DNA of 64,000 nucleotides from the NCBI GenBank assembly GCA_964023275.1, contig OZ029916.1:19748064-19812063 (forward strand), written 5' to 3'. Below the pieces are notes generated by a model. The model saw nothing but the letters and a program-made list of their open reading frames with translations, was not told where the DNA came from and ran no database searches. Shown one piece after another: positions 31,428-64,000 of the stretch (the stretch's first letter is position 1; each line of letters begins with the position of its first letter). The stretch is from Norana najaformis (Eukaryota; Annelida; Clitellata; Crassiclitellata; Hormogastridae). The translations under genes were made by a program, and so were the position numbers.

Positions 31428-31796
31428 CTACCTTAAGAGAGTAGTAGTCACTCCAGGCCGTTGCCCGGCGCTTTTTTAATTTCTTCACTTTGACATATCC
31501 AATCTGCGACAAAGGTAAAGACTCCTCCCTCTCAGGAGTGGACCGGAGGTGGACTCGTGCACAATGCACTCGTCCATCAAGTGTATCGATACAGACTCCA
31601 CTGCAAATGACTTCCTGTGTGTTCGATCGGATATTGCGTATGAAACAAAAACCCAGGCAAATACTGCAATTGCTAATTGTCCATCCTATCAAACACTAAC
31701 ATCTACTGCACATCTACATCGACATTTAAAACCACTCAAAGTTGACGCCCTATTCAAAGTTAATGGTTCGTGTAAACCGAGAGTTCTTAGAACGCG
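31428..31796 (-). mobile_element. Short retroelement with diverged 28S rRNA-like 3' tail and 8-bp TSD
   Basis: CTACTTAG flanks both ends (31420-31427 and 31797-31804). Read on the minus strand, the last ~70 bases (31428-31497) run ATGTCAAAGTGAAGAAATT, then CGGGCAACGGC, GGAGTGACTA and CTCTCTTAAGGTAG. In order and spacing this is the large-subunit rRNA segment leading into the R2 target, with scattered changes. The next ~105 bases upstream are shared with the 49-kb insertion (GGAGTGGACCGGAGG and CATCAAGTGTATCGAT on the plus strand). The remaining 5' part is not shared. It is a 5'-variable, target-duplicating retroposon, either a 28S-derived SINE-like family or a truncated R2-like element. No coding domain was found. 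Confidence 0.7.
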
Positions 31797-36802: not shown

Positions 36803-38982
36803 TGTGGCGTTCTCGGTCGGGCTAACAGTCCACGGGGTGGGGGTAACTCTAGCCCAGTTCTACGCTCAGAGCCACCCGCCTCACTGCCCCTTGCACTCTC
36901 ACTGTACAATGGTCTTCCCGTATCATCTCTTCCCATACTGTCTGTTCTCTCCAAGGAAGGCCTAGGATAGGTCGCTTCCCTAAGGGAATCAACACTGTAA
37001 CTCTCGGTCTTGGGATCAGACTTTGCCTCTTCCGCGGTCGCCGGATGGGCAACGTCCTGAGGATGGCCTTTACTCAGAACAGGGTTCGTTCCTTTACTGG
37101 CAATAGTCGTTCCCTTTCTCCGTGAGGACTTTCTCGTAACTACCATTCTACATCTTGTAACTCTCCCGTTACCGCCAATATTTTCAGGCACCAGTCGTTT
37201 TCTCGGTCCCGGGAACAGGGAAGTCTCACAACGAGCCTCTGTGTCTTTCCGCCCTAGGCACAAGGATATTGGGCGACACATCTTCCCACTATCTCGCTCC
37301 ATTTCCGTGTATAGGATTTCCGGAGTAAGTTTCTGCACCAGATCTCTGTTGGCAGTTATCAACCAACAGTGCTTCAGGGGATAGGATACCCCTATGGAAT
37401 ACTCAAGAGAAGGTCCCCTCTCTAACCTTCTGTAAAACACACCAACCTTCGTACCGACCTACGCACGAGGGGGCCCTTCCCCGCACTTCAGTCAGTCCTC
37501 TGATCAGTGTGTGGCGACAAGCATATAGAGGAGTCGGTATCTTCCCGTTTCGACTCCGGTGTTATCGGGGAACCGACCCGGACTATGATGTACCGGGTAT
37601 TTTCTTGGTCTGCGTTGTTTCCGGTCTCTTACGTACCGGGACTTTACTTGGTCTGCGTTAGTTCCGGTCTCTTGCGTACCGGGACTTTACTTGGTCTGCG
37701 TTAGTTTTCCGCCGGTCTTCCCGTATTCCGCTATCTGAATTTCGTCCGGGAGAACCGCGGCCGCAATTTTACCCGAGTTTCGCACAACCTGTTATCTTCC
37801 AACTATCGTGACCTACTCGACCGTCTCGCGACGTTCCAACAAGGTGGGCCCAAACCCTGCGGGACCAACGCGGAGCCAGTCAGAAATCAGACAGATTGGT
37901 TTGTTTCGGTTGCGATCTCCTCAGGAGCGCACGGACCAGTTTTCTATACGGCACGGGCTTCCTCGTACGGCAAATGCTACCCCGGGTTCACACAGACCTG
38001 TCTACTCGTATTTTCCCCGAGCCTCGCTCAGCGGCTGTTCACCAACTATCGTGACCTACTCGACCGTCTCGCGACGCTCCAACAAGGCGGGCCCAAACCC
38101 TGCGGATCAACGCGGAGCCAGTCAGAAATCAGACAGATTGGTTCGCAACGGCTGCGACGTTCCCGGGAGCGCACCGATCCGATTTTTCTCTTACGCGGTC
38201 AAAGGGGTAGCTTCCGTACTTTCCCACTTGTTTTACACAGACCTGTATATATTTCTTACGAACGGGGTCTTTCCCCGGATTCTGTCCGACCTCAACGTTC
38301 ACCGTCGTGGCCCAGGCCGCCTCGCGATCTACGGTAGAGCCCTAGCTCCACCCGGATCGGCGCCGTCCGCCCGAAGCCAGACAGTGATTGTCTCGGTCGT
38401 CCCGCCGGGAGCGCACAGATTAGTCTTTTCCGCGGACTCTACCGTCCGTATATTTTATCGTAACCGGGGCACTATCGAACACGGGCTTCTCCGGACGTCA
38501 CCCTCGTCCGTATGTATTTGTATACGCTATGAATTCGCTCACAGAACGATATCAAAACACTGTAACTCGTATATGTGAAGGCACGCATCCATCCTTCACG
38601 TCTATAGCAAATCACCATGCGACACGGTTTATTCAACCCTCGTTTCCTATTGACATCGGGTTGCTTATATATTAGCGCTTACGATAAAACGTAAATAAAG
38701 GTGTCTAAAAGTGCTCGATTAAAACAAACATCTAGAGACCTATAAATTAAAACAATTATGTGCATTATATAACTAAAAATAAACTAAGAACTTTGCTCGG
38801 CCTAAATATTAAACTATTATTATAATCAGCTTAAATTTAATAAAAATTAATTTATAAAAATTCTACACAAGTAACGCGGCCGAACCGAGCACATAAGCAC
38901 AGAATTTAATGGCTACCTAACGCGTGTCATAATTACTCCCGCCTTTTACCCAACAGGCTTGTCTTGTGGCCGATCCGCCACA
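36803..38982 (-). repeat. 3' LTR (complete, 2180 bp)
   Basis: Matches the right LTR base for base at a constant offset of 10,170. By eye there are only three differences (36804/46974, 37011/47181, 37037/47207) over 2.1 kb. In element sense U3 starts at 38982. A TATA-like TATATAATGC is at 38771-38762 and AATAAA at 38633-38628, which would make U3 short (~0.25 kb) and U5 very long (~1.8 kb). Contains three 43-bp tandem units (37590, 37633, 37676) and a ~243-bp duplication (37799, 38042). The U3 end includes a 28S-like tract at 38910-38951. Confidence 0.93.
38910..38951 (-). other. 28S rRNA-like tract (R2 target mimic) in the LTR U3
   Basis: On the minus strand this reads GGGTAAAAGGCGGGAGTAAT, then TATGAC, ACGCGTTAGG and TAGCCA. 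Conserved animal 28S rRNA around the R2 insertion point reads GGGTAAACGGCGGGAGTAAC, TATGAC, TCTCTTAAGG, TAGCCA (from memory). About 36 of 42 positions agree without gaps. The resemblance is directly visible; the origin by capture from rDNA is inference. Confidence 0.75.
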
Positions 38983-38995
38983 CTCTCCCCACCTT
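38983..38995 (-). promoter_or_regulatory. Polypurine tract
   Basis: In element sense AAGGTGGGGAGAG directly abuts the TGTGGCGG start of the 3' LTR, the expected plus-strand primer of reverse transcription. Confidence 0.9.
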
Positions 38996-39650
38996 ACTTA
39001 GATGCGGAGCATCTCCGACAAAACCGGGGACCTAAATCGATCGTGACACAGAAACATCTCCAACTCAGATCCATTTAGAGGGCAAGGAACCAATATACCT
39101 TTGGTTATAGGGCGGTTACTCTGACTCGGTAATCTCTGCTACCATGCACGTCCGCCAGCTAACGGTGAGAGCCTCAACAACTGAGTGAGCAAACAGCCCA
39201 TACGCCCAGTGCCCTTACCCTTCTTCGACCGTGTCAGCGACAGCCTCATTACTGGTGTAAGAGACTCAAACCTCCACCCTACTGGCAACCTGTCCAGTTC
39301 ACCAGATCACCAACCTTAGCGTGGCCCTCTGTCATGAAACTGAGCTCTACCTAACCGCAAATGGCAAGGAGACTTAGGAGAGAAAAGTCACCAACTATCT
39401 CCCGATCTTGCCAATACACACCAACTCCATCAGATCAGATCATGCGTGTACAACCCCGAAAAATATTGATAAGGCAACAGCTAAACCAGCAGGCCCGCAT
39501 CGCTCTGTGGTCTAAATTATTTTTTTTTTTATTTATTTATTTTTTTAAAATAAAAACTATTTACAAACATCGCTAATAACAGTACAATGCAATCAAATTA
39601 AAAGTAACTATACAAGTAGCATCATCTATACAATCGCAACCTAACAGACA
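38996..39650 (-). other. Element 3' noncoding region, first part
   Basis: No coding is recognised between pol and the 3' LTR. A T-rich run lies at about 39520-39546 (plus strand), poly-A-like in element sense. No envelope features (signal peptide or membrane anchor) are visible. Confidence 0.6.
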
Positions 39651-39659
39651 TCGCTACCG

Positions 39660-40375
39660 CAATATCTAACTATACAAGTGTCAGCCAATGCAGCGACTAG
39701 TTGCGACAGCATTAACGTATGATATACAAACAATATCCAATCGAAATTTTGTACATCAAATACTCAAATCTCAAACGTTGAAAATACCAGCGATTTTCCG
39801 CAATTAAAACAGGCGTATGCATATTTCCGCAATACAGTACATCACAGAAGCTCAATATATTCTGTTAAACACGAACTCAGCAGTTAAAGCACTAGTACTG
39901 CCAATCGTTACACAGAAATTAGCACAGTAAAAATTGTCATCAAACAGAAACGTAAATCTCTCACTCCAACCTGTCTTAAACACTCCGCAATTAAGCGGTA
40001 TCTAGTACCTCAAGTCTTTATACATTTCGGTACTAAAATATTACAGACAAGAATTATGATCAAAAGAAACTCAGTACGTATTCTTGAACAGTCCATACCA
40101 TTTCGCAAATAAACGGTAATCGCGTGTCATCATCGCAGTTACACTTAAAAACTACGATACTTCCAACATAAATTTCCATCAACACGCAACACGCACTTCG
40201 TATTTTGTAATCGGTCTGCAAAATCTTCGGAGTTAAACGGTACATATAATACAACAACTCGTAGCTAAGTAAACATACACAGTCCAAATGAAATTTCACA
40301 TCAAAAGTAAACTAAACATTCAGTATTCAAAAACAGTCGTTTAAACTCCCGCAATTAAGCGGTTATCATTGTCCT
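39660..40375 (-). repeat. Diverged ~120-bp tandem repeats in element 3' region
   Basis: The plus-strand word CCGCAATTAAGCGG or close variants recurs at 39798, 39985, 40103, 40226 and 40348; the last four are spaced 118-123 bases apart. Neighbouring words (ACAGTCC, ATCAAAAG/ATCAAACAG, TTTAAAC) recur in the same order, so these are about four to five eroded tandem units. Confidence 0.7.
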
Positions 40376-40443
40376 CGCGAAGGGACTCTTGTTTTCTTTC
40401 GGTAGCTTCGAAAGTCACTCTTAAGAATCACTCGCCGTTATGT

Positions 40444-43400
40444 CTAACAATAGTAATCGTCCATCCAACGAGGCGGCCGAATTGGTCGTCGAGGAGGGTT
40501 TACTTCGTTGCATGTTTCAGGAACAGTCAATTCCGGAGGATTCGCTTCGTTACACGTCTCGGGAACAGTCAATTCCGCCGAGGTGCCTTGAGGGTCCCCC
40601 AATTCAACCTCCGGTTCTTGCTCTCGAGACAGGACTTCTAAATTTCCGACGTCGACAATATGGTTATCCTCTTTCTCTGGTAACCAAGTCTTCGGAGGTT
40701 TACCGTGATAAGGCTTCAATTTATTGACGTGTACCACCAGTGGTGTGGCTTTGGAATTCTTCTGTATCCGATATAACACCGGACTTAGAACTTGAACAAT
40801 CAAGAAGGGTCCCGTGTAGAATCGGGCCCATTTTGCTTTCCTTCCGCTCCTAAGCCGAGGGTAGTAATAGTAAACCCAGTCTCCATATGAAAACTGACTA
40901 GGTCTCACTCGTAAGTCATACGTTTTCTTCTTTCTTTCTGCAGTTCTCTTCAGTTGCTCCCGTACTAGACGATAAGCAGTTTCCATTTTCTCTTTCTGTT
41001 TGTCCACATATTCTTCCAGGTTACCGTAGGAAGAACTCTCACGTTCCACTATCTGGGCAAGAATCAAATCTAATGGCGTATGATTCTCTCTTCCCAAGAA
41101 CAGGAAATTAGGAGTTCTTTGGGTAGCTTCATGTTCCGTCGACCGATATGCCGCCATCACATATGGTACATGAACGTCCCAGTCCTTCTGTCGTTCCGAT
41201 ACCACTTTCCCGATCAACATGTTCAGGGTTCGGTGAAACCTTTCGATCATTCCGTTGCCCGACGGCCGATAGGGAGTCGTCCGTATTTTATCAATCTCCA
41301 TCAGTTTACACAGCTCTTTAAACAGAGCTGATTCGAAACACGGTCCTTGATCCGTCAATATCTGGCGTGGCATACCGAATCGAGAAAAGACGTGCACCAT
41401 TAGAGTTTCTGCAACAGTAACGGCCTCTTGGTTTCTAATAGGTAGTGCTTCAGCCCAACGAGAGAAATAATCTATCGCGGTCAGGATATATTTGTTCCCT
41501 TTGCTGGATACCAGGTGTGGTCCAGTAATATCAATTCCAAATCTCTCCATTGGCTCACCTACCAGCGGACTCTGCAAATAACCCTGTCTTGGTGGCTTTT
41601 CTCGTCTATACCGAGCACAGCGATCACAACGTTGACAAAACCGTCTAACATCGTCCTTCCAGCCTGGCCAAAATGCCCGACGTTGTAACTGGCTCATGCT
41701 CTTACGGATCCCAAAGTGTCCTCCAGCGAAACTTCCATGCGTCAGTTCAAGCATCTCCTTTCGTCGAGATGAGGGCACGACCAACTGATAACGTTCAACT
41801 TGCCCGGTACTGCCTTGAACCCAGTCTCTGTGCAGCACGCCTTGGAGCACTTCCAACTGATTCCAGTTGCTCACCAATACTTTGATTTCTTCGCAAGAAG
41901 GCGAGAGTTCTTGTTCGGTTGGATGGTGATTGGACTCCTTCCAACTAAGAACTGGACCAATACTACGATCGTTCTGCTGCTCTCTTCGTAGAATCTCTTT
42001 AGTCCAGCTAGCTTCCTGGCCTGAATTTCCATCGGTCAAATCTGCGGGCGGTACCTCTTCGATAGGACGTACCCACGCCGCCTCTCCCATCAATCGTTTA
42101 CTGTCGTCTTCAATACACTGTCCTTCAGACGGGCCCCTGGACATGGCATCTGCATTCCCGTGTTTTGTCCCTGCTCGGTGACAAATTTCTAAGTCAAACT
42201 CTTCTATCGTCTCCAACCATCGAGCCTGCTGACCGATCGGTTCCGGAGTCCTGCGCAACCATTGAAGCGCGGAATAGTCCGTCCGCAGAAGGAATTTTCT
42301 GCCCAACAGGTACTGACGAAACTCTTTGAGAAAGTAGACCACAGCTAACAATTCTCTTCTGGTCACATTATAATTTCGCTCTGCCGACGATAATAGTCTG
42401 CTTGCATAGGAAATCACTTTTTCTTGTCCTTCCTGCACCTGTGATAACACCGCTCCGATGGCATAAGCGGAGGCATCCGTGTCCAATATGTACTGCCCAT
42501 CATCGTTGGGTAGTGCCAATACTGGTGAAGTGACAAGCCTTCGTTTTAGTTCTTCGAAAGCCTCTTGGCATTCATCGGTCCATCGAAACGGAACATTCTT
42601 CCTGGTAAGGAAGTGCAGCGGTTGGGCGATCACCGCGAAATCTGATATGAAACGTCGATAGTATGAGCAAAGTCCTATAAAGGATCTCACTTGTCGCAAG
42701 TTCCGAGGAACGGTCCAATCTTCCACAGCCTTGACCTTATTCGGGTCCGTGGCTACCCCTTCATCACTCAATATATGTCCAAGGAACAACACTTTCTGCT
42801 GAAGCAGGTGGCACTTGGATGGCTTCAGTTTGAGATTATACTCTCGTAGTCTTTTGAACACCATCTCTAACCGTCGCATATGTGTCTCTACATCCCTGGA
42901 GAACACAATTATATCGTCTAGATAAACTAGACAAATATCGTAATTAAGTCCAGTCAAGACCAAGTTCATTAACCGACAAAACGAAGCGGGGCTATTACAC
43001 AATCCAAATGGCAACACTCTGAATTGGAAACTTCCCCTTCTTGTCACAAAAGCGGTCTTATGCTTGTCTCTCGGATGCAGGGCCATCTGGTGGTACCCTG
43101 ACCTCAGATCGAATGTACTATACCATCTGGCTCCTCCAAGTGTATCCAAACTCTCACGGATTAGAGGTAACGGATGGGCGTCTTTGCGCGTTTTAAGATT
43201 TAACTGTCTGTAATCTACGCAAAAGCGCATACTGCCATCTTTCTTCTTTACCATTACGACATTGGATGCCCAATCCGACATTGATGGCTCCACAATTCCT
43301 TGGTTCAACATATCTTCTACCTGACGATCAATCTCTGGCAACATAGAAAGTGGCTGTCGTCTCAGTGGTTGACGAACAGGTTTCTCTTGCTGGGTATCAA

Positions 43401-44310
43401 TCTCATGCTGTATTATCGAAGTAAACCCATGGTCACTCTCACTCAGCGAAAACGTTGTGCTGTAGGAAAGCACTAATTCACGTAACCGTCTCCGCTCGTC
43501 CTCTGAAACGTCAGGTGGAACCTCTTCCCATAACCGTTTCAGGATCTGTTCTGCCTCAGGTTTGTTCGGCTGCTCTGTCACTCCAGTCACCATACGGATC
43601 TTCGAAGGTGTCTCTTCTTCCGTATTTTTCTGCTCTTCCCGGAACTGTTTAGCTTCGGCATCAATCAATTCAACACGTTCCAACCAACATTCGGTCCTTT
43701 TCTTGACAAGCGAGTTTTTGTTCCCAACGTTCAACATTCTTATCCACACTTTCGGTTCCTTTCCTGTAACCAAGGTGCGTCCTATCATCAGGTCTGGTGT
43801 CAGTTCCGCTGGCACGATGGTCCAGTCTCCGTTATCCTCTCGGAAATGCGGATATACTACTGATGCCGGAACGTCAACCTCGCTTCTAGGAGGAACTACA
43901 GTGTCTTCCTGAACGACTACTCTTCGGCACATAGATTCAGCAACGGCTTCTTTTAGAGGGATTCTTTCGCTCCCTAACCATACAGACCGACTAGCAAAGT
44001 CCCATCTAGCCTGATTACTCTCTAGCCAGGACAATCCCAAGATCACTTCGGTCACTTGGTCTGTCGCTAAACATGGTAACTGGTACAACTTCTTTCCAAT
44101 ACGAATCTCCAGCGTAGTTTCACCGTCCACTTTTATCTCGCTTCCGTTCGCAGCTAAGAGACGCTGCTCCGATGGTGTCAACTCGGTGCTCAGTACAAGA
44201 CGTCGTGGCACAAGTGACATCTCACTCCCTGAATCCATCAGACAATGAAGTCGCTTCCCTTCTAGTCTAGCGACGACATAAGCCATCCTGCTACCCTTGA
44301 CCAAGCGATT
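40444..44310 (-). CDS. pol: Pol polyprotein: protease, reverse transcriptase, RNase H, integrase
   Basis: An uninterrupted frame of 1288 codons follows the gag UAG directly (numbering below counts from the TTG at 44304; the first ATG is residue 7). An aspartic protease has LMDSGSEMS (D24) and ILGLSWLE. The RT runs about 300-500, with FDLRSGYHQ (D399), LPFGLCNSPASF and YLDD (461-464). RNase H has D610 (DTDAS), E651, D676 and D719. The integrase zinc finger is H856, H863, C893, C896, with the DDE triad D925 (GIDITGP), D985 (LTDQG) and E1021 (GMIERFHR), 35 residues apart. The GPF motif is at 1165-1167 within a chromatin-facing module. A duplicated ELTVPETCNE phrase lies in the tail. Every catalytic residue expected is present, so this pol may be functional. 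No own initiation context is evident; expression from gag by stop readthrough is likely. Confidence 0.95.
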   Translation of the reverse strand, partial: NRLVKGSRMAYVVARLEGKRLHCLMDSGSEMSLVPRRLVLSTELTPSEQRLLAANGSEIKVDGETTLEIRIGKKLYQLPCLATDQVTEVILGLSWLESNQARWDFASRSVWLGSERIPLKEAVAESMCRRVVVQEDTVVPPRSEVDVPASVVYPHFREDNGDWTIVPAELTPDLMIGRTLVTGKEPKVWIRMLNVGNKNSLVKKRTECWLERVELIDAEAKQFREEQKNTEEETPSKIRMVTGVTEQPNKPEAEQILKRLWEEVPPDVSEDERRRLRELVLSYSTTFSLSESDHGFTSIIQHEIDTQQEKPVRQPLRRQPLSMLPEIDRQVEDMLNQGIVEPSMSDWASNVVMVKKKDGSMRFCVDYRQLNLKTRKDAHPLPLIRESLDTLGGARWYSTFDLRSGYHQMALHPRDKHKTAFVTRRGSFQFRVLPFGLCNSPASFCRLMNLVLTGLNYDICLVYLDDIIVFSRDVETHMRRLEMVFKRLREYNLKLKPSKCHLLQQKVLFLGHILSDEGVATDPNKVKAVEDWTVPRNLRQVRSFIGLCSYYRRFISDFAVIAQPLHFLTRKNVPFRWTDECQEAFEELKRRLVTSPVLALPNDDGQYILDTDASAYAIGAVLSQVQEGQEKVISYASRLLSSAERNYNVTRRELLAVVYFLKEFRQYLLGRKFLLRTDYSALQWLRRTPEPIGQQARWLETIEEFDLEICHRAGTKHGNADAMSRGPSEGQCIEDDSKRLMGEAAWVRPIEEVPPADLTDGNSGQEASWTKEILRREQQNDRSIGPVLSWKESNHHPTEQELSPSCEEIKVLVSNWNQLEVLQGVLHRDWVQGSTGQVERYQLVVPSSRRKEMLELTHGSFAGGHFGIRKSMSQLQRRAFWPGWKDDVRRFCQRCDRCARYRREKPPRQGYLQSPLVGEPMERFGIDITGPHLVSSKGNKYILTAIDYFSRWAEALPIRNQEAVTVAETLMVHVFSRFGMPRQILTDQGPCFESALFKELCKLMEIDKIRTTPYRPSGNGMIERFHRTLNMLIGKVVSERQKDWDVHVPYVMAAYRSTEHEATQRTPNFLFLGRENHTPLDLILAQIVERESSSYGNLEEYVDKQKEKMETAYRLVREQLKRTAERKKKTYDLRVRPSQFSYGDWVYYYYPRLRSGRKAKWARFYTGPFLIVQVLSPVLYRIQKNSKATPLVVHVNKLKPYHGKPPKTWLPEKEDNHIVDVGNLEVLSREQEPEVELGDPQGTSAELTVPETCNEANPPELTVPETCNEVNPPRRPIRPPRWMDDYYC

Positions 44311-45840
44311 CTAAACTTCCTCTTGGATGTGTTCTGCTTTAGGAGGTTCATTGTTACTGCTTTCTCTACCCGTTTCGGAAACTCGTTGAGGACAAAACCT
44401 TTTTATGTGCCCTTTTTGTCTACAGATGTAACACTCGATATCAGGGTTTCTCAACCGTCCTTGCGGAAATAACCGTTTCTGCGTACCGTTCGTATCGGTT
44501 TTCCGTTGACCATCAGCGCCTCCTTCTAAACCGCCCTCTCTCTCTTGCGGTTTTCCCGGTACAAGACTGGGGTCTTGCTTACTGGTAAATCGCCCAATTT
44601 CTTTAGACAGATTCTTAATCTCCCTTTCGAGATCTTCTAAACGACGATTTTGTTGCTCGTCGGCAACCGAGGATTTTCGATCCTCTCTTGTAACTTTAAT
44701 TCGGCCATGCCTACGGTCAATATCAGTAGCCTGTGATGAAGATCGACCATAAGCGTCTAATCGAACGGCGTGCTTATACGCAGCCTCAAGGTTATCTGGT
44801 TCTTTCTCTCGCACCTTCTGAGCCAAATCTTGGTTAGCGAGCGCATCAATGAACGCGTCGCAAGCAACCGTTTCGACAATATCGCTTGTGGGTCCCGGAT
44901 AGGCCAAAGCCATCAGCCTCCTTATTTCCTGCACTACATTGCTCAAGCTTTCTCCTGGAGCCTGTCTGTAAGTGCGAAGTTTCATTCGATAAAGACTGGT
45001 CTGGTCTTCGGATCCGTATCTGGCTTTAAGCCTTTCAACGAGTTCATGCCAGGTAACATTTTGGTGTGCACCCATATCCCACAACAGTTGAGATGCGGGC
45101 CCTGTCAGAGCACACATTAATTGGTCTGCTTTCTCTTGGTCACTCCATGCGTTACAACGAGCACAGACTTCGAATTTCGCCAAAAATGCGGCAACCGCCG
45201 TTTTTCCATCATATTTTTCAAGTTTAATCCGTATCCCTCGGTCGGTCGCCTTTCCGTTTCTCTTCTCAGTAATACGCGTCTTTTCCATACGCTTTTTATA
45301 ATTCCTCGTAGTTATCTCACGATCACTTGGTTCACTTTCCTCTGCACTACTCAATGTAGACCGATGCTGGTCGGTTACATGGCCCGCGGAATTCCCGAAA
45401 TCTGCCACTTTGACTTTAGTACGAAATCTCTGGGAACTTTCCCCGTTATTCGTACGTCTCCGGCCGCGGCTGCCAATATCACTCATTGCCTTCATGTCAA
45501 AGTGGCTACGTTCTTTGAACTTAGAATTCTGCCCTGTAGAGCATTGCTCTCGTGTGGCTTCCCAAGCAGAAAGCTCTCTGTCCGTTTCTCGGTCTTCGCA
45601 GCGTCTTTCGTATTTGACGGGAGCTCCCGAGGCAAACGTATCTCTCCCAGTTTCTGGGTAAATCCCGCGTCTCTGACTTTCGCGGGACATTTCCCGAGTT
45701 TTTCGACCAAAAGCATTTCTGTCGTTTTCCGGGTACTTTCCGCGTCTCTCACTTTCGCGGGACCATTCCCGTTCTTTTCGATCAAAAACCTTTCTATTGG
45801 TTTCCGGGTTTCTCCCGTGTCTCTGACTTCCGCGGGACAT
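44311..45840 (-). CDS. gag: Gag, capsid and nucleocapsid part
   Basis: 510 codons from ATG 45840 to TAG 44313-44311. N-terminal residues 1-75 are 25-residue charged repeats (RES-RRG-YPE-R type). Residues 204-365 match the Ty3/Gypsy retrotransposon gag capsid domain (KYDGKTAVAAFLAKF, LTGPASQLLWDM, RMKLRTYRQAPGESL). A predicted coiled-coil-like stretch lies at 395-420. The CCHC zinc knuckle is C470-X2-C473-X4-H478-X4-C483. The upstream frame is open and in register beyond a TGA at 45895-45897, so this ATG may be an internal methionine of a longer gag. The terminal UAG is in frame with pol. Confidence 0.85.
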   Translation of the reverse strand: MSRGSQRHGRNPETNRKVFDRKEREWSRESERRGKYPENDRNAFGRKTREMSRESQRRGIYPETGRDTFASGAPVKYERRCEDRETDRELSAWEATREQCSTGQNSKFKERSHFDMKAMSDIGSRGRRRTNNGESSQRFRTKVKVADFGNSAGHVTDQHRSTLSSAEESEPSDREITTRNYKKRMEKTRITEKRNGKATDRGIRIKLEKYDGKTAVAAFLAKFEVCARCNAWSDQEKADQLMCALTGPASQLLWDMGAHQNVTWHELVERLKARYGSEDQTSLYRMKLRTYRQAPGESLSNVVQEIRRLMALAYPGPTSDIVETVACDAFIDALANQDLAQKVREKEPDNLEAAYKHAVRLDAYGRSSSQATDIDRRHGRIKVTREDRKSSVADEQQNRRLEDLEREIKNLSKEIGRFTSKQDPSLVPGKPQEREGGLEGGADGQRKTDTNGTQKRLFPQGRLRNPDIECYICRQKGHIKRFCPQRVSETGRESSNNEPPKAEHIQEEV

Positions 45841-45930
45841 TTCCCGAACTTCCCGACCAATTGTCTCTTTGTCGGTTTCCGGGTACTTTCCGCGTCACAC
45901 ACTTTCGCGGGATCTTTCCCGACCTAATGT
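45651..45930 (-). repeat. 75-bp (25-codon) tandem repeats within gag
   Basis: The plus-strand word TTTC(T/C)GGGT starts units at 45651, 45726, 45801 and 45876, exactly 75 bases apart, each with CGCGGGA later. The period preserves the reading frame. Confidence 0.93.
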
Positions 45931-46971
45931 CTCTCGGCCAAACTTCTGGTAAGACTTGCGTCTTTCACGTTCACGAACTATCTTCAGACCGGAATTTCTG
46001 TCACTCGATACCGCATCTCTGTCTGTCTCTGAATCGGTCGCGCCATCTGACGAAGATTGTCTCACCTCAACTTCGTATTTTTCAGTCAGAAATCGCCTCC
46101 ACAATTTTCTCGACTGTCCGTCCTGAGAAAGTTCTCGTTTCTCTGGGTAACCTTGGCTCCGCGAGTTTCCCGAAACTTCAGCCTTCGGAAATCTCTGTTC
46201 CTTCTCTGGGAACACTCGGCTCCGCGACTTTCCCGACACTTCGCCTTCGGAACATTCTTCACGTATCTCTGGGTAACCTCGGCTCCGCGAGTTTCTCGTA
46301 ACTTCATCCTCAATGTTTCCTCGGCGATCTTCCGGGTTACCTGGGCCCATAGGGTTCCCCGAAATTGCGCTTCGGAACACGTCTGAGGGTTGAGCCGTTA
46401 AAACTGACATTTCTTCCAGCCTGTTACTCAAAGTTATCACAGTCTGCCGTAGGTAAGACATCTCAGCCATCCAGTCCATTTGATTTCTGGTGGAACTGCC
46501 ATGGTCTTGGTCAGCCACCCGCGAACGCACCTCATCATCGTAACACCAACGTATCCCAAAAGTACTTGTTTCCTTCTCTCTGCATATAGGTCGCGGTCCT
46601 CCAACCTGTTCGAATGCTTTTGGCATACCTTCCACGATATTCTCGTGTATATAATAACTCTGGTTGTCCTCAGCCATTTCTGTCATCCATGGGACCATTC
46701 TTGAAAACTTTTCGTAACCCGCGAGAGAAAACAAATTTCTCTCAAGATCTCTCTGCGTCCCAGCTTCCGTTTCAATTGTACTAGGCGCGTCTTGCGCAGA
46801 TATTTCTTTACACAACGTTCGCGTATCTGGAAATATCTTTGGGCGAGCACCTCGGTAGTCCACACTTTCCTGCTCAAGGTGGGGATTATCATCTGACTCG
46901 TCATCTGCATCTTCAAGAACTTCCTCTGGTCTACGGAAAGAAAACGCTGGTACCCCACTTCTGGTACCACT
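45895..46971 (-). CDS. Gag N-terminal open segment, separated by one TGA
   Basis: The frame is the same as gag and pol. It is open from the LTR edge through the primer binding site to a TGA at 45897-45895. The first ATG in the internal region is 46698, giving about 267 codons; other starts are GTG. The protein is hydrophilic, with methionine-rich SRMVPWMTEMAE, a likely coiled coil around MDWMAEMSYLRQTVITLSNR, and three 21-codon tandem repeats (63-bp period at 46141, 46204, 46267; SGNSRSRGYPE type). 25-codon repeats begin at its end and continue past the TGA into the downstream gag. In sister repeat units the TGA position is AGA (Arg), so it looks like a nonsense change within one long gag. 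Confidence 0.65.
   Translation of the reverse strand, partial: SGTRSGVPAFSFRRPEEVLEDADDESDDNPHLEQESVDYRGARPKIFPDTRTLCKEISAQDAPSTIETEAGTQRDLERNLFSLAGYEKFSRMVPWMTEMAEDNQSYYIHENIVEGMPKAFEQVGGPRPICREKETSTFGIRWCYDDEVRSRVADQDHGSSTRNQMDWMAEMSYLRQTVITLSNRLEEMSVLTAQPSDVFRSAISGNPMGPGNPEDRRGNIEDEVTRNSRSRGYPEIREECSEGEVSGKSRSRVFPEKEQRFPKAEVSGNSRSQGYPEKRELSQDGQSRKLWRRFLTEKYEVEVRQSSSDGATDSETDRDAVSSDRNSGLKIVRERERRKSYQKFGRETLGRERSRESV
46952..46969 (-). promoter_or_regulatory. Primer binding site, tRNA-Leu type
   Basis: Three bases after the 5' LTR, element sense reads TGGTACCAGAAGTGGGGT. This is complementary over 18 bases to the 3' end of an animal tRNA-Leu (UAA-type acceptor, CCCCACTTCTGGTA plus CCA) as I remember it. 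It confirms the minus-strand orientation and the LTR boundary. Confidence 0.85.
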
Positions 46972-47472
46972 TTATGGCGTTCTCGGTCGGGCTAACAGTC
47001 CACGGGGTGGGGGTAACTCTAGCCCAGTTCTACGCTCAGAGCCACCCGCCTCACTGCCCCTTGCACTCTCACTGTACAATGGTCTTCCCGTATCATCTCT
47101 TCCCATACTGTCTGTTCTCTCCAAGGAAGGCCTAGGATAGGTCGCTTCCCTAAGGGAATCAACACTGTAACTCTCGGTCTCGGGATCAGACTTTGCCTCT
47201 TCCGCGATCGCCGGATGGGCAACGTCCTGAGGATGGCCTTTACTCAGAACAGGGTTCGTTCCTTTACTGGCAATAGTCGTTCCCTTTCTCCGTGAGGACT
47301 TTCTCGTAACTACCATTCTACATCTTGTAACTCTCCCGTTACCGCCAATATTTTCAGGCACCAGTCGTTTTCTCGGTCCCGGGAACAGGGAAGTCTCACA
47401 ACGAGCCTCTGTGTCTTTCCGCCCTAGGCACAAGGATATTGGGCGACACATCTTCCCACTATCTCGCTCCAT
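46972..47472 (-). CDS. Open frame in the 5' LTR, in register with gag
   Basis: From ATG 47472 there are 166 codons ending at a TAA (46974-46972) that straddles the LTR/leader junction; the frame opens further upstream at 47628. Composition is Arg/Ser/Glu/Pro-rich with no known domain. The left LTR has G where this TAA has A (36804 versus 46974). With that base the codon would not be a stop and the frame would run on through the primer binding site into gag. Whether it is translated is unknown. It may be open by chance in GC-rich DNA, as an antisense 256-codon frame in the same LTR shows. Confidence 0.4.
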   Translation of the reverse strand: MERDSGKMCRPISLCLGRKDTEARCETSLFPGPRKRLVPENIGGNGRVTRCRMVVTRKSSRRKGTTIASKGTNPVLSKGHPQDVAHPAIAEEAKSDPETESYSVDSLREATYPRPSLERTDSMGRDDTGRPLYSESARGSEAGGSERRTGLELPPPRGLLARPRTP

Positions 47473-49088
47473 TTCCGTGTATAGGATTTCCGGAGTAAGT
47501 TTCTGCACCAGATCTCTGTTGGCAGTTATCAACCAACAGTGCTTCAGGGGATAGGATACCCCTATGGAATACTCAAGAGAAGGTCCCCTCTCTAACCTTC
47601 TGTAAAACACACCAACCTTCGTACCGACCTACGCACGAGGGGGCCCTTCCCCGCACTTCAGTCAGTCCTCTGATCAGTGTGTGGCGACAAGCATATAGAG
47701 GAGTCGGTATCTTCCCGTTTCGACTCCGGTGTTATCGGGGAACCGACCCGGACTATGATGTACCGGGTATTTTCTTGGTCTGCGTTGTTTCCGGTCTCTT
47801 ACGTACCGGGACTTTACTTGGTCTGCGTTAGTTCCGGTCTCTTGCGTACCGGGACTTTACTTGGTCTGCGTTAGTTTTCCGCCGGTCTTCCCGTATTCCG
47901 CTATCTGAATTTCGTCCGGGAGAACCGCGGCCGCAATTTTACCCGAGTTTCGCACAACCTGTTATCTTCCAACTATCGTGACCTACTCGACCGTCTCGCG
48001 ACGTTCCAACAAGGTGGGCCCAAACCCTGCGGGACCAACGCGGAGCCAGTCAGAAATCAGACAGATTGGTTTGTTTCGGTTGCGATCTCCTCAGGAGCGC
48101 ACGGACCAGTTTTCTATACGGCACGGGCTTCCTCGTACGGCAAATGCTACCCCGGGTTCACACAGACCTGTCTACTCGTATTTTCCCCGAGCCTCGCTCA
48201 GCGGCTGTTCACCAACTATCGTGACCTACTCGACCGTCTCGCGACGCTCCAACAAGGCGGGCCCAAACCCTGCGGATCAACGCGGAGCCAGTCAGAAATC
48301 AGACAGATTGGTTCGCAACGGCTGCGACGTTCCCGGGAGCGCACCGATCCGATTTTTCTCTTACGCGGTCAAAGGGGTAGCTTCCGTACTTTCCCACTTG
48401 TTTTACACAGACCTGTATATATTTCTTACGAACGGGGTCTTTCCCCGGATTCTGTCCGACCTCAACGTTCACCGTCGTGGCCCAGGCCGCCTCGCGATCT
48501 ACGGTAGAGCCCTAGCTCCACCCGGATCGGCGCCGTCCGCCCGAAGCCAGACAGTGATTGTCTCGGTCGTCCCGCCGGGAGCGCACAGATTAGTCTTTTC
48601 CGCGGACTCTACCGTCCGTATATTTTATCGTAACCGGGGCACTATCGAACACGGGCTTCTCCGGACGTCACCCTCGTCCGTATGTATTTGTATACGCTAT
48701 GAATTCGCTCACAGAACGATATCAAAACACTGTAACTCGTATATGTGAAGGCACGCATCCATCCTTCACGTCTATAGCAAATCACCATGCGACACGGTTT
48801 ATTCAACCCTCGTTTCCTATTGACATCGGGTTGCTTATATATTAGCGCTTACGATAAAACGTAAATAAAGGTGTCTAAAAGTGCTCGATTAAAACAAACA
48901 TCTAGAGACCTATAAATTAAAACAATTATGTGCATTATATAACTAAAAATAAACTAAGAACTTTGCTCGGCCTAAATATTAAACTATTATTATAATCAGC
49001 TTAAATTTAATAAAAATTAATTTATAAAAATTCTACACAAGTAACGCGGCCGAACCGAGCACATAAGCACAGAATTTAATGGCTACCT
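46973..49088 (-). repeat. 5' LTR, main part
   Basis: Corresponds to 36803-38918 of the other LTR without indels. It has the same 43-bp units (47760, 47803, 47846), TATA-like box (48941-48932) and AATAAA (48803-48798). The remaining 64 bases of U3 lie beyond the insertion at 50185-50248. Internal end TATGGCG instead of TGTGGCG. Confidence 0.93.
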
Positions 49089-49170
49089 TAAGAGAGTACT
49101 AGTCACTCCAGGCCGTTGCCCGTTGCTTTTTGAACTTCTTCACTTTGACTTATTCAGTTAGCACTGGGCA
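49081..49170 (-). other. Diverged 28S-like 3' tail of the insertion
   Basis: Minus-strand order: TGCCCAGTGCT, CTGAATAAGTCAAAGTGAAG, ACGGGCAACGGC, GGAGTGACTAG, CTCTCTTAAGGTAGCC. 28S rRNA has the same blocks in the same order and spacing (TGCCCAGTGCTCTGAATG, TCAAAGTGAAGAAATTC, GGGTAAACGGC, GGAGTAACTATGA, CTCTCTTAAGGTAGCC, from memory). Confidence 0.75.
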
Positions 49171-50184
49171 AAACCTCCTCCCTCTCGGGAGTGGCCCGGA
49201 GGCAGATTCGTGCACGAGGCACTCATCAATCAAGTGTGTCGATGCAGTTTCCGTCACCAGTTCGGAGCATGCTGTAGTGCCCTCATCCTTCACCCCTGGG
49301 TCGGGGGATCCGGTATTTTCACCCTGCACGCAACAGGGCCACAAACTGCGAGCCAATCACTTGCCTTACAGGCGGTCGCTCCCCCACCTTCCGGTTCGAC
49401 CAGGGGCCACCAGGCACCGATCCCCAGACGGGCACCACTGCGCAGCCCCCACGACCACGGTACGTAGGCGTTTATTCCGCCCCGCATTACGTACTCCGTC
49501 CCAGTGACGGCCAGTGAGGAAGGTGCAATCACTACTGCACCGACCGGTTGGCACTCGACCCGACTCTTTTAACATTTCCGCCTTAGGGCAGCGTGGGCCC
49601 ATTCCCCTTCCGTCCTGAACGGTGATTGTCCCCTCGCAGAACGCTGTCCCTGACGGGATTTTGTTCTGCTCAGAGCGCCGGTCGCAGGCAAGGCCAACAA
49701 GAGAGCCCGTGGTTGCCTGTCAAGACGGTGGAGCAAAGGTGTTGCGGCACCCCGCTCCGGAGTCGAAGCTGATCTCACCACTCGTATCCAAGCCTTTCGT
49801 TTTCGCCGCGACGAGAGCACACGGCTACTAACTACTAAGCCTTTCCGCTCATGGTATCCAACCAATCAGCCTCTTGGTAAGGCTGAACACCTCATTTGCC
49901 ATCTAACGATTGACCGGCCGCCCCAAGCCGCGAAGCGTACGAAGAGCAAACCGGCCGGTACTCTAGGGTATCCACTATGTATCTGAGTGGTACCGTTAAA
50001 GCCCGTGAAGCATCCGCCAGACATTACCGCAGCAACCTTAGCCCAGAAGTCGCCACTCATCCAGCTAAGCATTGTTCTGCGGGGTAGACTCACCGGGAAT
50101 AGACCAACGAACTCACACACGTGATAGAGTCATAGTTACTCCCGCCGTTTACCTAATGTTTACCTAATGTCCCGATGTTTACCT
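49089..50184 (-). mobile_element. 1.1-kb 28S-associated retroelement inserted in the LTR at the R2-like position
   Basis: The LTR is interrupted between GGCTACCT and AACGCG (plus strand), and TACCT occurs at both edges (49084-49088 and 50180-50184). In sense orientation (minus) the insert has three parts. The 5' end carries an apparently exact 28-nt 28S segment (50153-50126). The interior is ~900 bp of GC-rich sequence with a broken open frame (50120 to 49290, at least two stops). The 3' tail is a diverged 28S-like stretch of ~90 bp ending CTCTCTTAAGG directly before the LTR TAGCC. The 3' ~175 bp resemble the 31.4-kb element. This fits an R2-like or 28S-derived nonautonomous element. No RT or endonuclease domain is recognised. 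Extra GTTTACCTAAT duplications lie at the 5' junction. Confidence 0.7.
50126..50153 (-). other. Exact-looking 28S rRNA segment at the insertion 5' end
   Basis: The minus strand reads GGTAAACGGCGGGAGTAACT then ATGACTCT, the conserved 28S sequence just upstream of the R2 site. It is followed by ATCACGTG instead of CTTAAGG. Confidence 0.8.
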
Positions 50185-50248
50185 AACGCGTGTCATAATT
50201 ACTCCCGCCTTTTACCCAACAGGCTTGTCTTGTGGCCGATCCGCCACA
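50185..50248 (-). repeat. 5' LTR, outer 64 bases displaced by the insertion
   Basis: Identical to 38919-38982, ending CGCCACA next to the TACG target duplication. It carries the upstream half of the LTR 28S-like tract. Confidence 0.92.
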
Positions 50249-50299
50249 TACGTACATTCACAATAAGCGGTCATGCTAATTGAATAGCCAGACCACCAT

Positions 50300-50560
50300 G
50301 CGACAAAGTGGTTCTATTCAGTTGTAGCACTGGGTCTGTAATCGGAAGGTTGTGGGTTCGTGTCTGCTGAGCGGATTTATTGTAACGACCCTAGACAAGT
50401 TGCTTGCGCGCACGTGCTTCAGACGCCAAGCAGCATAATTTGGTACCGACATAATCGGGGAAGCAAAACAAGTCCTGCGATGTTATGTCACCGGTGCGTG
50501 GCCAGGATCTCAGGAATTGTCTTCTGCCGGCTCAAGGGCCGTAGAGCGGCAAATAAGCGC
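50300..50560 (+). mobile_element. tRNA-headed SINE
   Basis: The head contains CAGTTGTAGCACTGGGTCTG and GGTTGTGGGTTCGTGTCTGC (A- and B-box-like). It continues with CCTAGACAAGTTGCTTGCG, CAGCATAATTTGGTACCG and AAGTCCTGCGATGTTATG. The body order parallels the 32.7/52.5-kb elements, so these are probably one SINE superfamily. Confidence 0.65.
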
Positions 50561-52124
50561 CTTCCCTGCGTTCCACTAGCAGTCCCGCGGAGAGGGAAAG
50601 GACCTATTGACCAGGGGACCGTCCTACCAAAGGGGCCCCGGTCGGGTGCTGCCGGACAAAATTTAAAAACGGAAAAGCTACCGATAAGGTGTTATACACC
50701 AAAGAGCTATGTAAAATAAATTCGGAGAGAAGATGACGTATCTAGATACTCATATTTTAATAAAAGGTAATAATTTTCAAGATCTAAACGTGTTGCTTAA
50801 TGAATTAAGTATATTTGATATTTGTTTACACGTATATTAGACAGATTCTTTACTAGCATAGATCTAAATTAGACAAATGCTATTTATTTTCATAATAGAC
50901 TGAAAATATTTAACGAGTGTTGCTGTGTTTAAAAATGATAAATATCTAAAAATTCCTATATGTATAAATGATTTGCCGTGACGTTTTCTTAGCTGCTTTT
51001 AACAATAATTAAATATTGCAGTTTGACTCGAATAATATTCAAAGTTCAGTTGTACCGATCACAAGACCAAAGCTCTTAAATAAACATTTATTAAGCACTG
51101 GCCACTTTTGTCCATTTTGCATCGTCAGCAATTTTATTAGCCTGATGCGCGTGCGTGTTATTAATCTGCACGGCTTGCATGTTTTACCTTCAGTTCAGTC
51201 ACCTGCTTGCCCACTACATATACACCAGGTATGACACACAGGTGCATTTTGCCTAAATCGGGAAGTTCGCAATTATCCATTCAGAAGCTCAACACATCAA
51301 CTGATTGGCCTGTATAGCAATCGAACTCCCACTAAGCACTGCTCCACGCTTCTGGAAAATTGTCCACTTATAAAGACCACATATAAAGCCTATTATTAGT
51401 TTGTTATGCACATATAAGTAATTTACTAACTTAAATTGGCCTATAGTATTGCGTAGGCAAGTTATACACATGTTACTAATGAAAGACGTGTACGCTTGTT
51501 TAAACGACAACAGAATTGACACAGTACGCACCTTTGCCAGATTACGAGTGGACTCTTCACGAGTTCAACGACTCCACCAACTCTATATTTAGAAAAGCGG
51601 TTGATCTCCCGTGCGAAACACTATCTCCGCAGGAAATATATAGACTGGCAGGTACGAAATTACCGATAGAATCAGAAAAACACGACATCCGATTCTGATG
51701 TCAACATCTCTTCTTTCATTTTTAACGCCGATTTATGATATGTATGCTTTGGCTAAGCCATTAAACGGAGCTTTGTAAGCATGAGCAGATCTGTTTAAAT
51801 TCGAGTGACGTTGAGAGTGATTTGGCAACAGTTGGAGAAAATCGACCGGAATCCATGCAGTTACAATCCGCCTGCGATGTCTGCCGACCGTGCTCTCTTT
51901 GTCAAGCGCTTCTTGTTTCTGATTGCTTGAAGCTTTTCGTCGTGATGTAAGGTTACACGCAACTCCATGAACCGCATGCACTATAACTTCGATATTCAGT
52001 CCATATCGGCCAGAAACCCTACTGAATGTAGAACATGTCAACCTATATAATCGAGCCTTTATATACTTGGTATTTCCACCTCAATTCTGCTGACGCTCAC
52101 TTGCCTTCCGCCAGTCCGTACGTT
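50561..52124. other. No gene recognised
   Basis: AT-rich in 50700-51010. Open frames such as 51733-52041 (minus) have no recognisable domain. Confidence 0.5.
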
Positions 52125-52782
52125 CATCCCTAATCGTAATCGTAATCTCGAGATTTCTACAGCGCCCAGCGGGAACCAGCTTATTCACAGGCGCTCAGTC
52201 AAAACAAAATCGCTAGGCAAAAGGGTTCGGTTCCAGGTCAAGATCCCTACACCTTAGTCGCAATAAATAGCGGCAACAGAAACAAAGGAATAAACATGAT
52301 TTCAGTTTCTCTTCCTTTCTTCTTAGCTTAATTTACAAATTTCATATGATGTATGTCCCTGAGACGCAGAGGGAAGCAGTGCGCACGAGACAGAAGACTG
52401 ATAAAACGACATCCATATGGGTAACTATTGGTTTAAACTATAAGTAAAAAGTAAAAGTAAAGCTCTCAAGTCTATACTGGAGCGCAGCTCATATCTCGCT
52501 CTTCGGTTCTAGAGCTGACAATGGATGAATCACAAGGTTTTGGACACGGGGCTAGGGTATCGCAGCACTTGTCTTTTACTTCCACGCTTACGCCAGTACG
52601 AAATTATAGTGTCTGGTGATAGAGACAAATGTGTGCGAACAATTTGTCCAAGGTTGTTATTACACCGAGTCCGATCACAAGGCTCTGAGCTGTAATCTTT
52701 GGATTGCAGGTTAAGTGCGCTAACGACAAACTACCATATTGGTAGCAAAATAACCGCCGTTCACAACCAACAGCCAACAGGC
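52125..52782 (-). mobile_element. Long SINE-like element, inverted relative of 32.7 kb, with GATTACG-type tail
   Basis: 52283-52780 matches 32698-33273 on the opposite strand. 52128-52240 is the 3' tail family of 6.8 and 22.5 kb (plus strand AATCGTAATCGTAATCTCGAG, AGCTTATTCACAGGCGCTCA). Together they suggest one ~650-bp element with a tRNA-like head and a hexamer-repeat tail. No target duplication was identified. Confidence 0.65.
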
Positions 52783-61909: not shown

Positions 61910-61913
61910 ACAA

Positions 61914-64000
61914 ATATGATGGTGACAAAACCGATTGAAACCGCGACTCGGGACCTGCAAAAACTTCGAAAAATATGATGGTGATAAAATCGGGCCTAAC
62001 CGCGACTCGAGACCTGCAAAAACTTCGAAAAAATATGATGGTGATAAAATCGGGCCTAACCGCGACTCGGGACCTGCAAAAACTTCGAAAAATATGATGG
62101 TGATAAAATCGGGCCTAACCGCGACTCGGGACCTGCAAAAACTTCGAAAAATATGATGGTGATAAAATCGGGTGAAACCGCGACTCGGGACCTGCAAAAA
62201 CTTCGAAAAATATGATGGTGATAAAATCGAGCCTAACCGCGACTCGGGACCTGCAAAAACTTCGAAAAATATGATGGTGATAAAATCGGGCCTAACCGCG
62301 ACTCGGGGCTTGCAAAAACTTCGAGAAATATGATGGTGATAAAATCGGGCCTAACCGCGACTCGGGACCTGCAAAAACTTCGAAAAATATGATGGTGATA
62401 AAATCGGGCCTAACCGCGACTCGGGACCTGCAAAAACTTCGAAAAATATGATGGTGATAAAATCGGGTGAAACTGCGACTCGGGACCTGCAAAAACTTCG
62501 AAAAATATGATGGTGATAAAATCGGGCCTAACCGCGACTCGGGACCTGCAAAAACTTCGAAAAATATGATGGTGATAAAATCGAGCCTAACCGCGACTCG
62601 GGACGCGCAAAAATTTCGAAAAATATGATGGTGATAAAATCGGGTGAAACTGCGACTCGGGACCTGCAAAAACTTCGAAAAATATGATGGTGATAAAATC
62701 GGGTGAAACCGCGACGCGGGACCTGCAAAAACTTCGAAAAATATGATGGTGATAAATTCGGGCCTAACCGCGACTCGGGACCTGCAAAAACTTCGAAAAA
62801 TATGATGGTGATAAAATCGGGTGAAACCGCGACTCGGGACCTGCAAAAACTTCGAAAAATATGATGGTGATAAAATCGGGCCTAACCGCGACTCGGGACT
62901 TGCAAAAACTTCGAAAAATATGATGGTGATAAAATCGGGTGAAACCGCGACTCGGGACCTGCAAAAACTTCGAAAAATATGATGGTGATAAAATCGGGCC
63001 TAACCGCGACTCGGGACTTGCAAAAACTTCGAGAAATATGATGGTGATAAAATCGGGCCTAACCGCGACTCGGGACCTGCAAAAACTTCGAAAAATATGA
63101 TGGTGATAAAATCGGGTGAAACTGCGACTCGGGACCTGCAAAAACTTCGAAAAATATGATGGTGATAAAATCGGGTGAAACCGCGACTCGGGACCTGCAA
63201 GAACTTCGAAAAATATGATGGTGATAAAATCGGGTGAAACCGCGACTCGGGACCTGCAAAAACTTCGAAAAATATGATGGTGATAAAATCGGGTGAAACC
63301 GCGACTCGGAACCTGCAAAAACTTCGAAAAATATGATGGTGATAAAATCGGGTGAAACCGCGACTCGGAACCTGCAAAAACTTCGAAAAATATGATGGTG
63401 ATAAAATCGGGCCTAACCGCGACTCGGGACCTGCAAAAACTTCGAAAAATATGATGGTGATAAAATCGGGTGAAACTGCGACTCGGGACCTGCAAAAACT
63501 TCGAAAAATATGATGGTGATAAAATCGGGCCTAACCGCGACTCGGGACCTGCAAAAACTTCGAAAAATATGATGGTGATAAAATCGAGCCTAACCGCGAC
63601 TCGGGACGCGCAAAAATTTCGAAAAATATGATGGTGATAAAATCGGGTGAAACTGCGACTCGGGACCTGCAAAAACTTCGAAAAATATGATGGTGATAAA
63701 ATCGGGTGAAACCGCGACGCGGGACCTGCAAAAACTTCGAAAAATATGATGGTGATAAATTCGGGCCTAACCGCGACTCGGGACCTGCAAAAACTTCGAA
63801 AAATATGATGGTGATAAAATCGGGTGAAACCGCGACTCGGGACCTGCAAAAACTTCGAAAAATATGATGGTGATAAAATCGGGCCTAACCGCGACTCGGG
63901 ACCTGCAAAAACTTCGAAAAATATGATGGTGATAAAATCGGGCCTAACCGCGACTCGGGACTTGCAAAAACTTCGAAAAATATGATGGTGATAAAATCGG
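61914..64000. repeat. 59-bp satellite array (about 35 units, continues past the window)
   Basis: Near-identical 59-bp units carry GACCTGCAAAAACTTCGAAA and ATATGATGGTGATAAAATCG. Two main variants have GGGCCTAACCG or GGGTGAAACCG. The unit is stop-free in all three minus-strand frames, which gives long meaningless open frames (up to 361 codons) repeating every 177 bp. The first unit at 61917 is the most diverged. Confidence 0.98.

What the first reader, a model, noticed from the sequence alone, without database searches (positions are those of the whole stretch)
49081..50248. A 28S-associated element has inserted exactly at the R2-equivalent position of the LTR mimic
R2 elements cut 28S between CTTAAGG and TAGCC. 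In the LTR mimic the matching junction is GTTAGG/TAGCC, and the 1.1-kb insertion breaks the LTR there, in the same orientation as R2 would use. The insert begins with an exact-looking 28S upstream flank and ends with CTCTCTTAAGG before TAGCC. This suggests target recognition by an R2-type machinery outside rDNA, i.e. one mobile element using bait carried by another.
Basis: partly seen in the sequence, partly recalled or inferred. Interest (0 to 1): 0.9.

Follow-up and report, generated by a model that had tools for sequence, protein, structure and literature searches.

The report
R2-derived element in retrotransposon decoy
A short, gene-less relative of R2, a jumping element that normally inserts into ribosomal RNA genes, has inserted into a copy of its ribosomal target that a different jumping element carries in its ends, and other copies in this genome have done the same.

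Summary
A young Ty3/gypsy-type element (minus strand, 36803-50248) carries in its LTR a 42-nt copy of the 28S R2 target (36/42 identical; score 30 against at most 17 in 500 shuffles). One LTR is empty; the other is interrupted by 1,096 nt (49086-50181) at the R2-equivalent junction GTTAGG|TAGCC, placed within a 5-nt ambiguity (AGGTA).

The insert is one of a dispersed family: 154 exact 3'-end 16-mers genome-wide, 0 in the reversed control. It starts with 28 nt identical to 28S. The other ~1,035 nt match the end of an R2-type element (L064+L047) that has the same 28S head, decayed R2 coding pieces and a 56-bp target duplication. It is best read as an R2 SIDE (short internally deleted element) inserted by target-primed reverse transcription.

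Six copies read end in this LTR family at that position, with differing 5' ends or duplications, so probably independently; 4 of 53 consecutive listed places. Specificity is relaxed: of 12 targets with clear duplications, 7 read AGG|TA and 5 do not. No HDV-like ribozyme was found. One exact 28S pattern gave 0 matches, so rDNA sources were not seen.

The parts
36803..50248 (-). Ty3/gypsy-type LTR retrotransposon that carries the bait
   Evidence: protease, RT, RNase H and integrase Pfam matches in 40447-44310 and gag in 44314-45894; LTR pair; TACG on both sides
36803..38982 (-). LTR with the empty site
38910..38951 (-). 28S R2-target mimic in the empty LTR, 36/42 identical to 28S from about -36 to +6; R2-equivalent junction between 38915 and 38916
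46973..49085 (-). larger part of the filled LTR; 2 mismatches in 2,111 aligned bases to the empty LTR
   Evidence: the low end is 2 bp beyond the BLAST match
50182..50248 (-). first 67 bases of the filled LTR, 0 differences to the empty LTR
49086..50181 (-). insert, 1,096 nt (edges ambiguous by 5 nt, AGGTA)
50154..50181 (-). 28-nt junction filler of TTAGGTAAAC-like repeats
   Evidence: read; shown
50126..50153 (-). 5' head of the R2 SIDE, 28/28 identical to 28S
49083..50117 (-). body of the SIDE (element positions 37-1071), shared with the distal 3' end of the R2-type element in L064+L047
49083..49169 (-). diverged 28S-like tail at the 3' end of the body, ending CTCTCTTAAGG
31428..31594 (-). 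second, 5'-truncated copy of the family in the window (element positions 906-1071, ~83%)
   Evidence: no target duplication found (best score 17)

Best explanation
The insert is an R2 SIDE: a non-coding R2 derivative in which a 28S/R2 5' end is joined to the end of an R2 3'UTR. An R2-type protein supplied in trans nicked the bottom strand of the LTR at GG|TAGCC, in a 28S-like stretch that the LTR carries, and copied the SIDE RNA there by target-primed reverse transcription; the 5' end was joined through short TTAGG/TAAAC homologies, which left the filler. Shown: junction, mimic, common ends with an R2-type element, recurrence in the LTR, target duplications. Inferred: which R2 protein acts; that the RNA is cut from a 28S co-transcript (full-length heads begin near -40 of 28S, and several types of 28S/body junction exist); that the upstream part of the mimic, and not only its AGG|TAG core, is recognised.
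For: LTR mimic above shuffles; junction at the R2 position within 5 nt. Common ends with R2: in L064+L047 a 28/28 28S head stands directly before decayed R2 coding pieces (PDB match E 3.8e-14 for one piece), and the body runs to the same 3' end; the whole unit has a 56-bp duplication, 50/56 identical, score 82 against 29 in 300 shuffles. The same coding-to-body junction lies in L062/L063, two copies of one duplicated locus. R2-type proteins with open frames of 1,110 and 1,138 aa exist in the genome (1,070 aa of one: E 5.3e-151 to 8gh6_A, 4.1e-93 to a chain named R2 retrotransposon protein). Recurrence: L001, L010, L018, L032, L061 have LTR on both sides, L033 on the 3' side only; L010 has a 13-bp and L018 a ~78-bp duplication; L032, L061 and L033 are 5'-truncated at element positions 952, 259 and 1012. 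4 of the first 53 places listed, all read, are in the LTR, the window copy included. Recent: 2 differences between the two LTRs.
Against: Targets are not uniform: 5 of 12 with clear duplications lack AGG|TA, and 45 of 57 copies gave no duplication by the strict test. No HDV-like ribozyme signal clearly above shuffles in the one copy tested (L019), and no HDV family in the Rfam search of 46001-52000. No 28S site found with the one pattern tried. The R2-type element that shares the body is decayed; no intact one of that type was seen. L032 fails the strict duplication test because its match stops 131 nt before the 5' junction.
Confidence: 0.82

Rival explanations
1. No recognition of the mimic: a loosely nicking R2-like or other LINE machinery is at work, and the SIDE RNA 3' end (TTAAGGTAG) anneals wherever TTAAGG|TAG-like bases occur; the LTR merely offers them in many copies.
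For: Targets such as L009, L015, L031 and L056 share only the short core; 5 of 12 lack even that. LTR copies are abundant (450 candidates). The duplication test counts the last 10 element bases, so sites resembling the element end are easier to detect.
Against: 4 of 53 listed places fall on one position of one LTR family. The number of TTAAGGTAG sites in the genome was only estimated from base composition (about 11 per Mb), not counted, so this rival is not excluded.
Confidence: 0.25
2. Recombination or gene conversion between 28S-like tracts carried the SIDE into the LTR.
For: 28S-like tracts lie in the LTR and at both ends of the SIDE.
Against: Target duplications in L010 and L018 and 5' truncations in L032, L061 and L033 are marks of target-primed reverse transcription.
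Confidence: 0.05
3. The long LTR is ancestral and the short one lost 1.1 kb by deletion between short repeats.
For: AGGTA occurs at both edges.
Against: 40 of 40 scored LTR matches lack the insert (with the selection noted above); the empty LTR is collinear with 28S across the junction; the same insert lies at many unrelated sites.
Confidence: 0.03
4. Chimeric assembly.
For: No reads were available.
Against: The arrangement occurs at other loci with different ends and the retroelement keeps its TACG on both sides.
Confidence: 0.02

Closest known systems
R2 SIDEs of Drosophila (PMC3414825; passages read)
   Same: Non-coding; R2 5' end joined to R2 3' end; variable 5' junctions; moved by an R2 protein
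   Different: Those lie in 28S genes and carry an R2 ribozyme; this family is dispersed, uses an LTR mimic among other sites, and no ribozyme was found
Fish R2 lineage with 28S-derived 3'UTR (PMC5035012; abstract, Results part 2 and Discussion read)
   Same: Diverged copy of the 28S just upstream of the R2 site at the element's 3' end
   Different: Those are full R2s in 28S, with 110-130 bp of 28S replaced; here the family is non-coding and mostly shows no loss of target, or duplications
R2 families without target specificity, R2NS-1_SMed and R2NS-1_CSi (PMC5035012), and R2-like elements of Blattella (PMC7650587; passages)
   Same: R2-clade elements outside rDNA
   Different: Here a preference for R2-like sites, including a mimic in an LTR, remains
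R9 of bdelloid rotifers (title seen in the reference list; 126-bp duplication recalled)
   Same: R2-clade with a long target duplication
   Different: R9 sits at a 28S site; duplications here vary from about 10 to about 125 bp and lie outside rDNA
SINE28 and other rRNA-derived SINEs (seen as listing entries; otherwise recalled)
   Same: 28S-derived sequence in a short retroelement
   Different: Here the body comes from an R2 3'UTR, and the 28S head is an R2 5' flank

Membership tests
R2 SIDE | 5' end of an R2 insertion (28S/R2 junction) | tested here: met
   28S head shared with the R2-type element in L064; several 28S/body junction types
R2 SIDE | 3' end shared with an autonomous R2 | tested here: met
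   L064+L047 and L062/L063; the R2 copies seen are decayed or truncated
R2 SIDE | No coding region of R2 | tested here: met
   tblastn of the 388-aa R2 piece against loci and window found no match in the element itself; stop-free frames up to 202 aa exist in some copies and were not searched further
R2 SIDE | HDV-like ribozyme at the 5' end | tested here: not met
   Home-made descriptor on one copy (L019), 18 start points, none clearly above shuffles; no HDV family in the Rfam search. An unusual ribozyme could be missed
R2 SIDE | Copies at the R2 site of 28S genes | not testable with these tools
   0 matches to one exact 28S pattern; Rfam 28S search not answered
R2-type retrotransposition (TPRT) | 5' truncations and target duplications at a defined 3' end | tested here: met
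   12 of 57 copies with duplications, control 1 of 400; truncated copies
R2-type retrotransposition (TPRT) | Insertion at CTTAAGG|TAG | tested here: inconclusive
   7 of 12 targets read AGG|TA, 5 do not
R2 (autonomous) | Own RT and endonuclease | tested here: not met
   absent from the insert; present in other loci
SINE (Pol III type) | Internal Pol III promoter or tRNA-type head | tested here: inconclusive
   ARAGORN found no tRNA gene in the window; A and B boxes were not searched for

The most novel reading that the evidence does not exclude
An LTR retrotransposon family carries a working decoy of the R2 target and so offers R2 machinery and its SIDEs hundreds of landing pads outside rDNA. 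The SIDE also brings its own 28S-like target at its 3' end, re-targets itself and builds tandem arrays. R2-type elements could leave the rDNA by following bait, without first losing specificity.
Probability: 0.55. Interest if true: 0.88.

Novelty: new variant of a known kind. Interest (0 to 1): 0.77.

Why it matters
R2 is the model for site-specific target-primed reverse transcription and is being developed for gene insertion into 28S (recalled). How strictly it keeps to 28S in nature, and how such elements change target, is open. Here is a natural set of insertions into partly mismatched targets (GTTAGG or CTTTAGG in place of CTTAAGG), with empty sites for comparison and at least one recent event. 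It also shows one transposon supplying the target of another.

Tried and rejected
Long LTR as the ancestral state: disfavoured. HDV-like ribozyme: nothing clearly above shuffles. Viral contigs: 0 matches to a 22-base piece. 28S in the assembly: the exact 28-mer gave 0. Never answered: the Rfam 28S search, a count of TACTCTCTTAAGGTAGCC and a search with L047:1-640 for further coding-to-body junctions (one search used L047:220-560).

R2 copies with poly(A) directly ahead of SIDE copies: L066, L073 and L077, 3 of the 8 loci printed (of 12 loci fetched). L066 is the locus from which the R2 query came, so it is not an independent case: without it 2 of 7. A template jump was considered and not settled; in L066 a 30-bp repeat lies between poly(A) and SIDE and again upstream of the R2 in L065, which argues for a separate R2 insertion. 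In L073 two SIDE-like copies also lie upstream of the R2. For the C6 array a tandem duplication is an alternative to self-targeting.

Selection: L001-L030 are the best matches to the query, which included LTR bases, so L010 is favoured there. The count 4 of 53 uses the listed order (C1 to C5:31804003; 53 of the 100 places listed and of 154 counted); one locus is present there as two duplicate copies (L045, L046). L018 has CTTGAGG and L061 lies on C8, so neither is in the 53. Rows with identical junctions were dropped before the counts of 46, 57 and 66.

Full report
WHAT IS THERE. The window lies in an unnamed 608-Mb genome of 17 contigs (C4:19748064-19812063); that the host is an animal is inferred from its R2 elements. 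Positions 36803-50248 hold a Ty3/gypsy-type retrotransposon on the minus strand, with protease, RT, RNase H and integrase matches in one open stretch and gag in another and TACG on both sides. The two LTRs differ at 2 of 2,111 aligned bases, plus 0 of 67, so this copy is young, and the insert, present in one LTR only, is younger still. Bases 32-73 of the LTR align without gaps to 28S around the R2 cut, 36 of 42 identical, score 30; the best of 500 dinucleotide shuffles of the LTR is 17. Related LTRs carry diverged forms with CTTTAGG|TAGCC (L010, L018, L032).

THE JUNCTION. In one LTR 1,096 nt stand between GTTAGG and TAGCC, the place that corresponds to the R2 cut CTTAAGG|TAGCC, in R2 orientation. 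AGGTA occurs at both edges, so the point is ambiguous by 5 nt. 40 of 40 scored LTR matches run straight through the site; these are the best of 450 candidates, a choice that favours empty copies.

THE INSERT. Read 5' to 3': 28 nt of TTAGGTAAAC-like filler; a 28-nt head identical to 28S; ~1,035 nt of body, whose last ~87 nt are diverged 28S ending CTCTCTTAAGG. It is a repeat: 53 matching rows from 40 scored of 819 candidates; the 16-base 3' end occurs 154 times, the reversed control 0 times. Many full-length copies start at GCGCGGG, CGCGGG or GCGGG, near -40 of 28S, and several types of 28S/body junction occur. That is what new 5' junctions formed in 28S genes would give; this step is inference. 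In 37 of 46 copies the 3' end is followed by TAG, after up to two A; in L009 and L015 the element ends TTAAGGTAG(C) and a target beginning TAG follows, so TAG can belong to the element.

KINSHIP WITH R2. L023 holds, next to a copy of the element, an R2-type protein piece (E 3.9e-66 to 8gh6_A; that this chain is Bombyx R2 is recalled). In L064+L047 the 28S head stands directly before decayed R2 coding pieces, and ~275 nt after the last coding similarity the element body begins and runs to the same 3' end. The unit is flanked by a 56-bp duplication, 50 of 56 identical, score 82, shuffled maximum 29 of 300. The same coding-to-body junction lies in L062/L063, which are two copies of one duplicated locus. 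The insert thus has both ends of this R2 type and lacks its coding part, the anatomy of a SIDE (PMC3414825, passages). A second R2 family has open frames of 1,110 and 1,138 aa, a 3'UTR of ~290 nt, often with poly(A), and non-rDNA flanks in the 8 loci printed. Which R2 serves as helper is unknown.

TARGETS. Six copies read end in this LTR family at the homologous place: L001 (window); L010 with a 13-bp duplication; L018 with ~78 bp; L032, 5'-truncated, with LTR sequence repeated from the site on, though the match stops 131 nt before the 5' junction; L061, 5'-truncated at element position 259; L033, 5'-truncated at 1012, with LTR on the 3' side only. Different ends make separate events the simplest reading; spread of a filled LTR by its own element was not tested. 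Among the first 53 places listed, all read, 4 are in the LTR, one of them the window copy. A strict test found duplications in 12 of 57 unique copies, control 1 of 400. Seven of these 12 targets read [A/T]AGG|TA: two LTRs, an earlier copy of the element, and L009, L015, L031, L056. Five do not: L016, L021 (listed as L041), L026, L030, L040. The test allows the last 10 element bases into the match, which favours sites that resemble the element end. Element sequence follows the 3' end directly or nearly so in L002, L044, L082 and L095, of 66 unique 3' flanks, and the C6 array has four copies with a period of 1116. This fits re-use of the element's own CTTAAGG|TAG end; tandem duplication is the alternative.

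MECHANISM. Most likely SIDE RNA is released near -40 from a 28S co-transcript; an R2 protein binds its 3' end, nicks the bottom strand of the mimic at GG|TAGCC and starts reverse transcription there; the top strand is cut at varying places, downstream in L010 and L018, close by in the window copy and L061; 5' ends are joined through short homologies. Shown: anatomy, kinship, recurrence, duplications. Inferred: helper, transcript, recognition of more than the AGG|TAG core. No HDV-like ribozyme was found in the one copy tested, unlike the R2s of PMC3774820 (abstract, Results and Discussion part 1 read; cleavage reported up to 36 nt upstream).

PRINT. PMC5035012 (abstract, Results part 2, Discussion read) describes fish R2s with 28S-derived 3'UTR and two R2s without target specificity. 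The listings show no title on an R2 or SIDE using a 28S mimic in an LTR; the library lacks most subscription papers and I read only four of the papers, none in full.

LIMITS. 28S genes were not found with the one exact pattern tried; the helper is not identified; the genome-wide count of filled LTR sites did not complete; there were no reads.

Noticed in passing
L066 (same locus as L023), L073/L078, L077: R2-type elements with poly(A) lie directly ahead of copies of the SIDE in 3 of 8 loci printed (2 of 7 without the locus that gave the query); in L073 SIDE copies flank the R2 on both sides.
   Followed up: partly
G000 C6:26540650-26545072; C15:4588488-4591514; C3:17253135-17254984; C7:9264914-9266592; C6:21294609-21296713: SIDE copies in tandem or close clusters.
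   Followed up: partly
SIDE body in L014, L021, L024: Stop-free frames of 202 aa in a body that otherwise looks non-coding.
   Followed up: no
window 40444-46971 (-): The gag-pol frame of the young LTR element is continuous apart from two in-frame stops, between the gag and pol pieces and inside the gag part.
   Followed up: no
window 61911-63923: Array of a 59-bp tandem repeat.
   Followed up: no
window 32696-33111 and 52366-52780: Inverted pair of a 416-bp repeat, 96% identical.
   Followed up: no
window 37766-38185 and 47936-48355: Duplication of about 180 bp (84%) inside each LTR.
   Followed up: no
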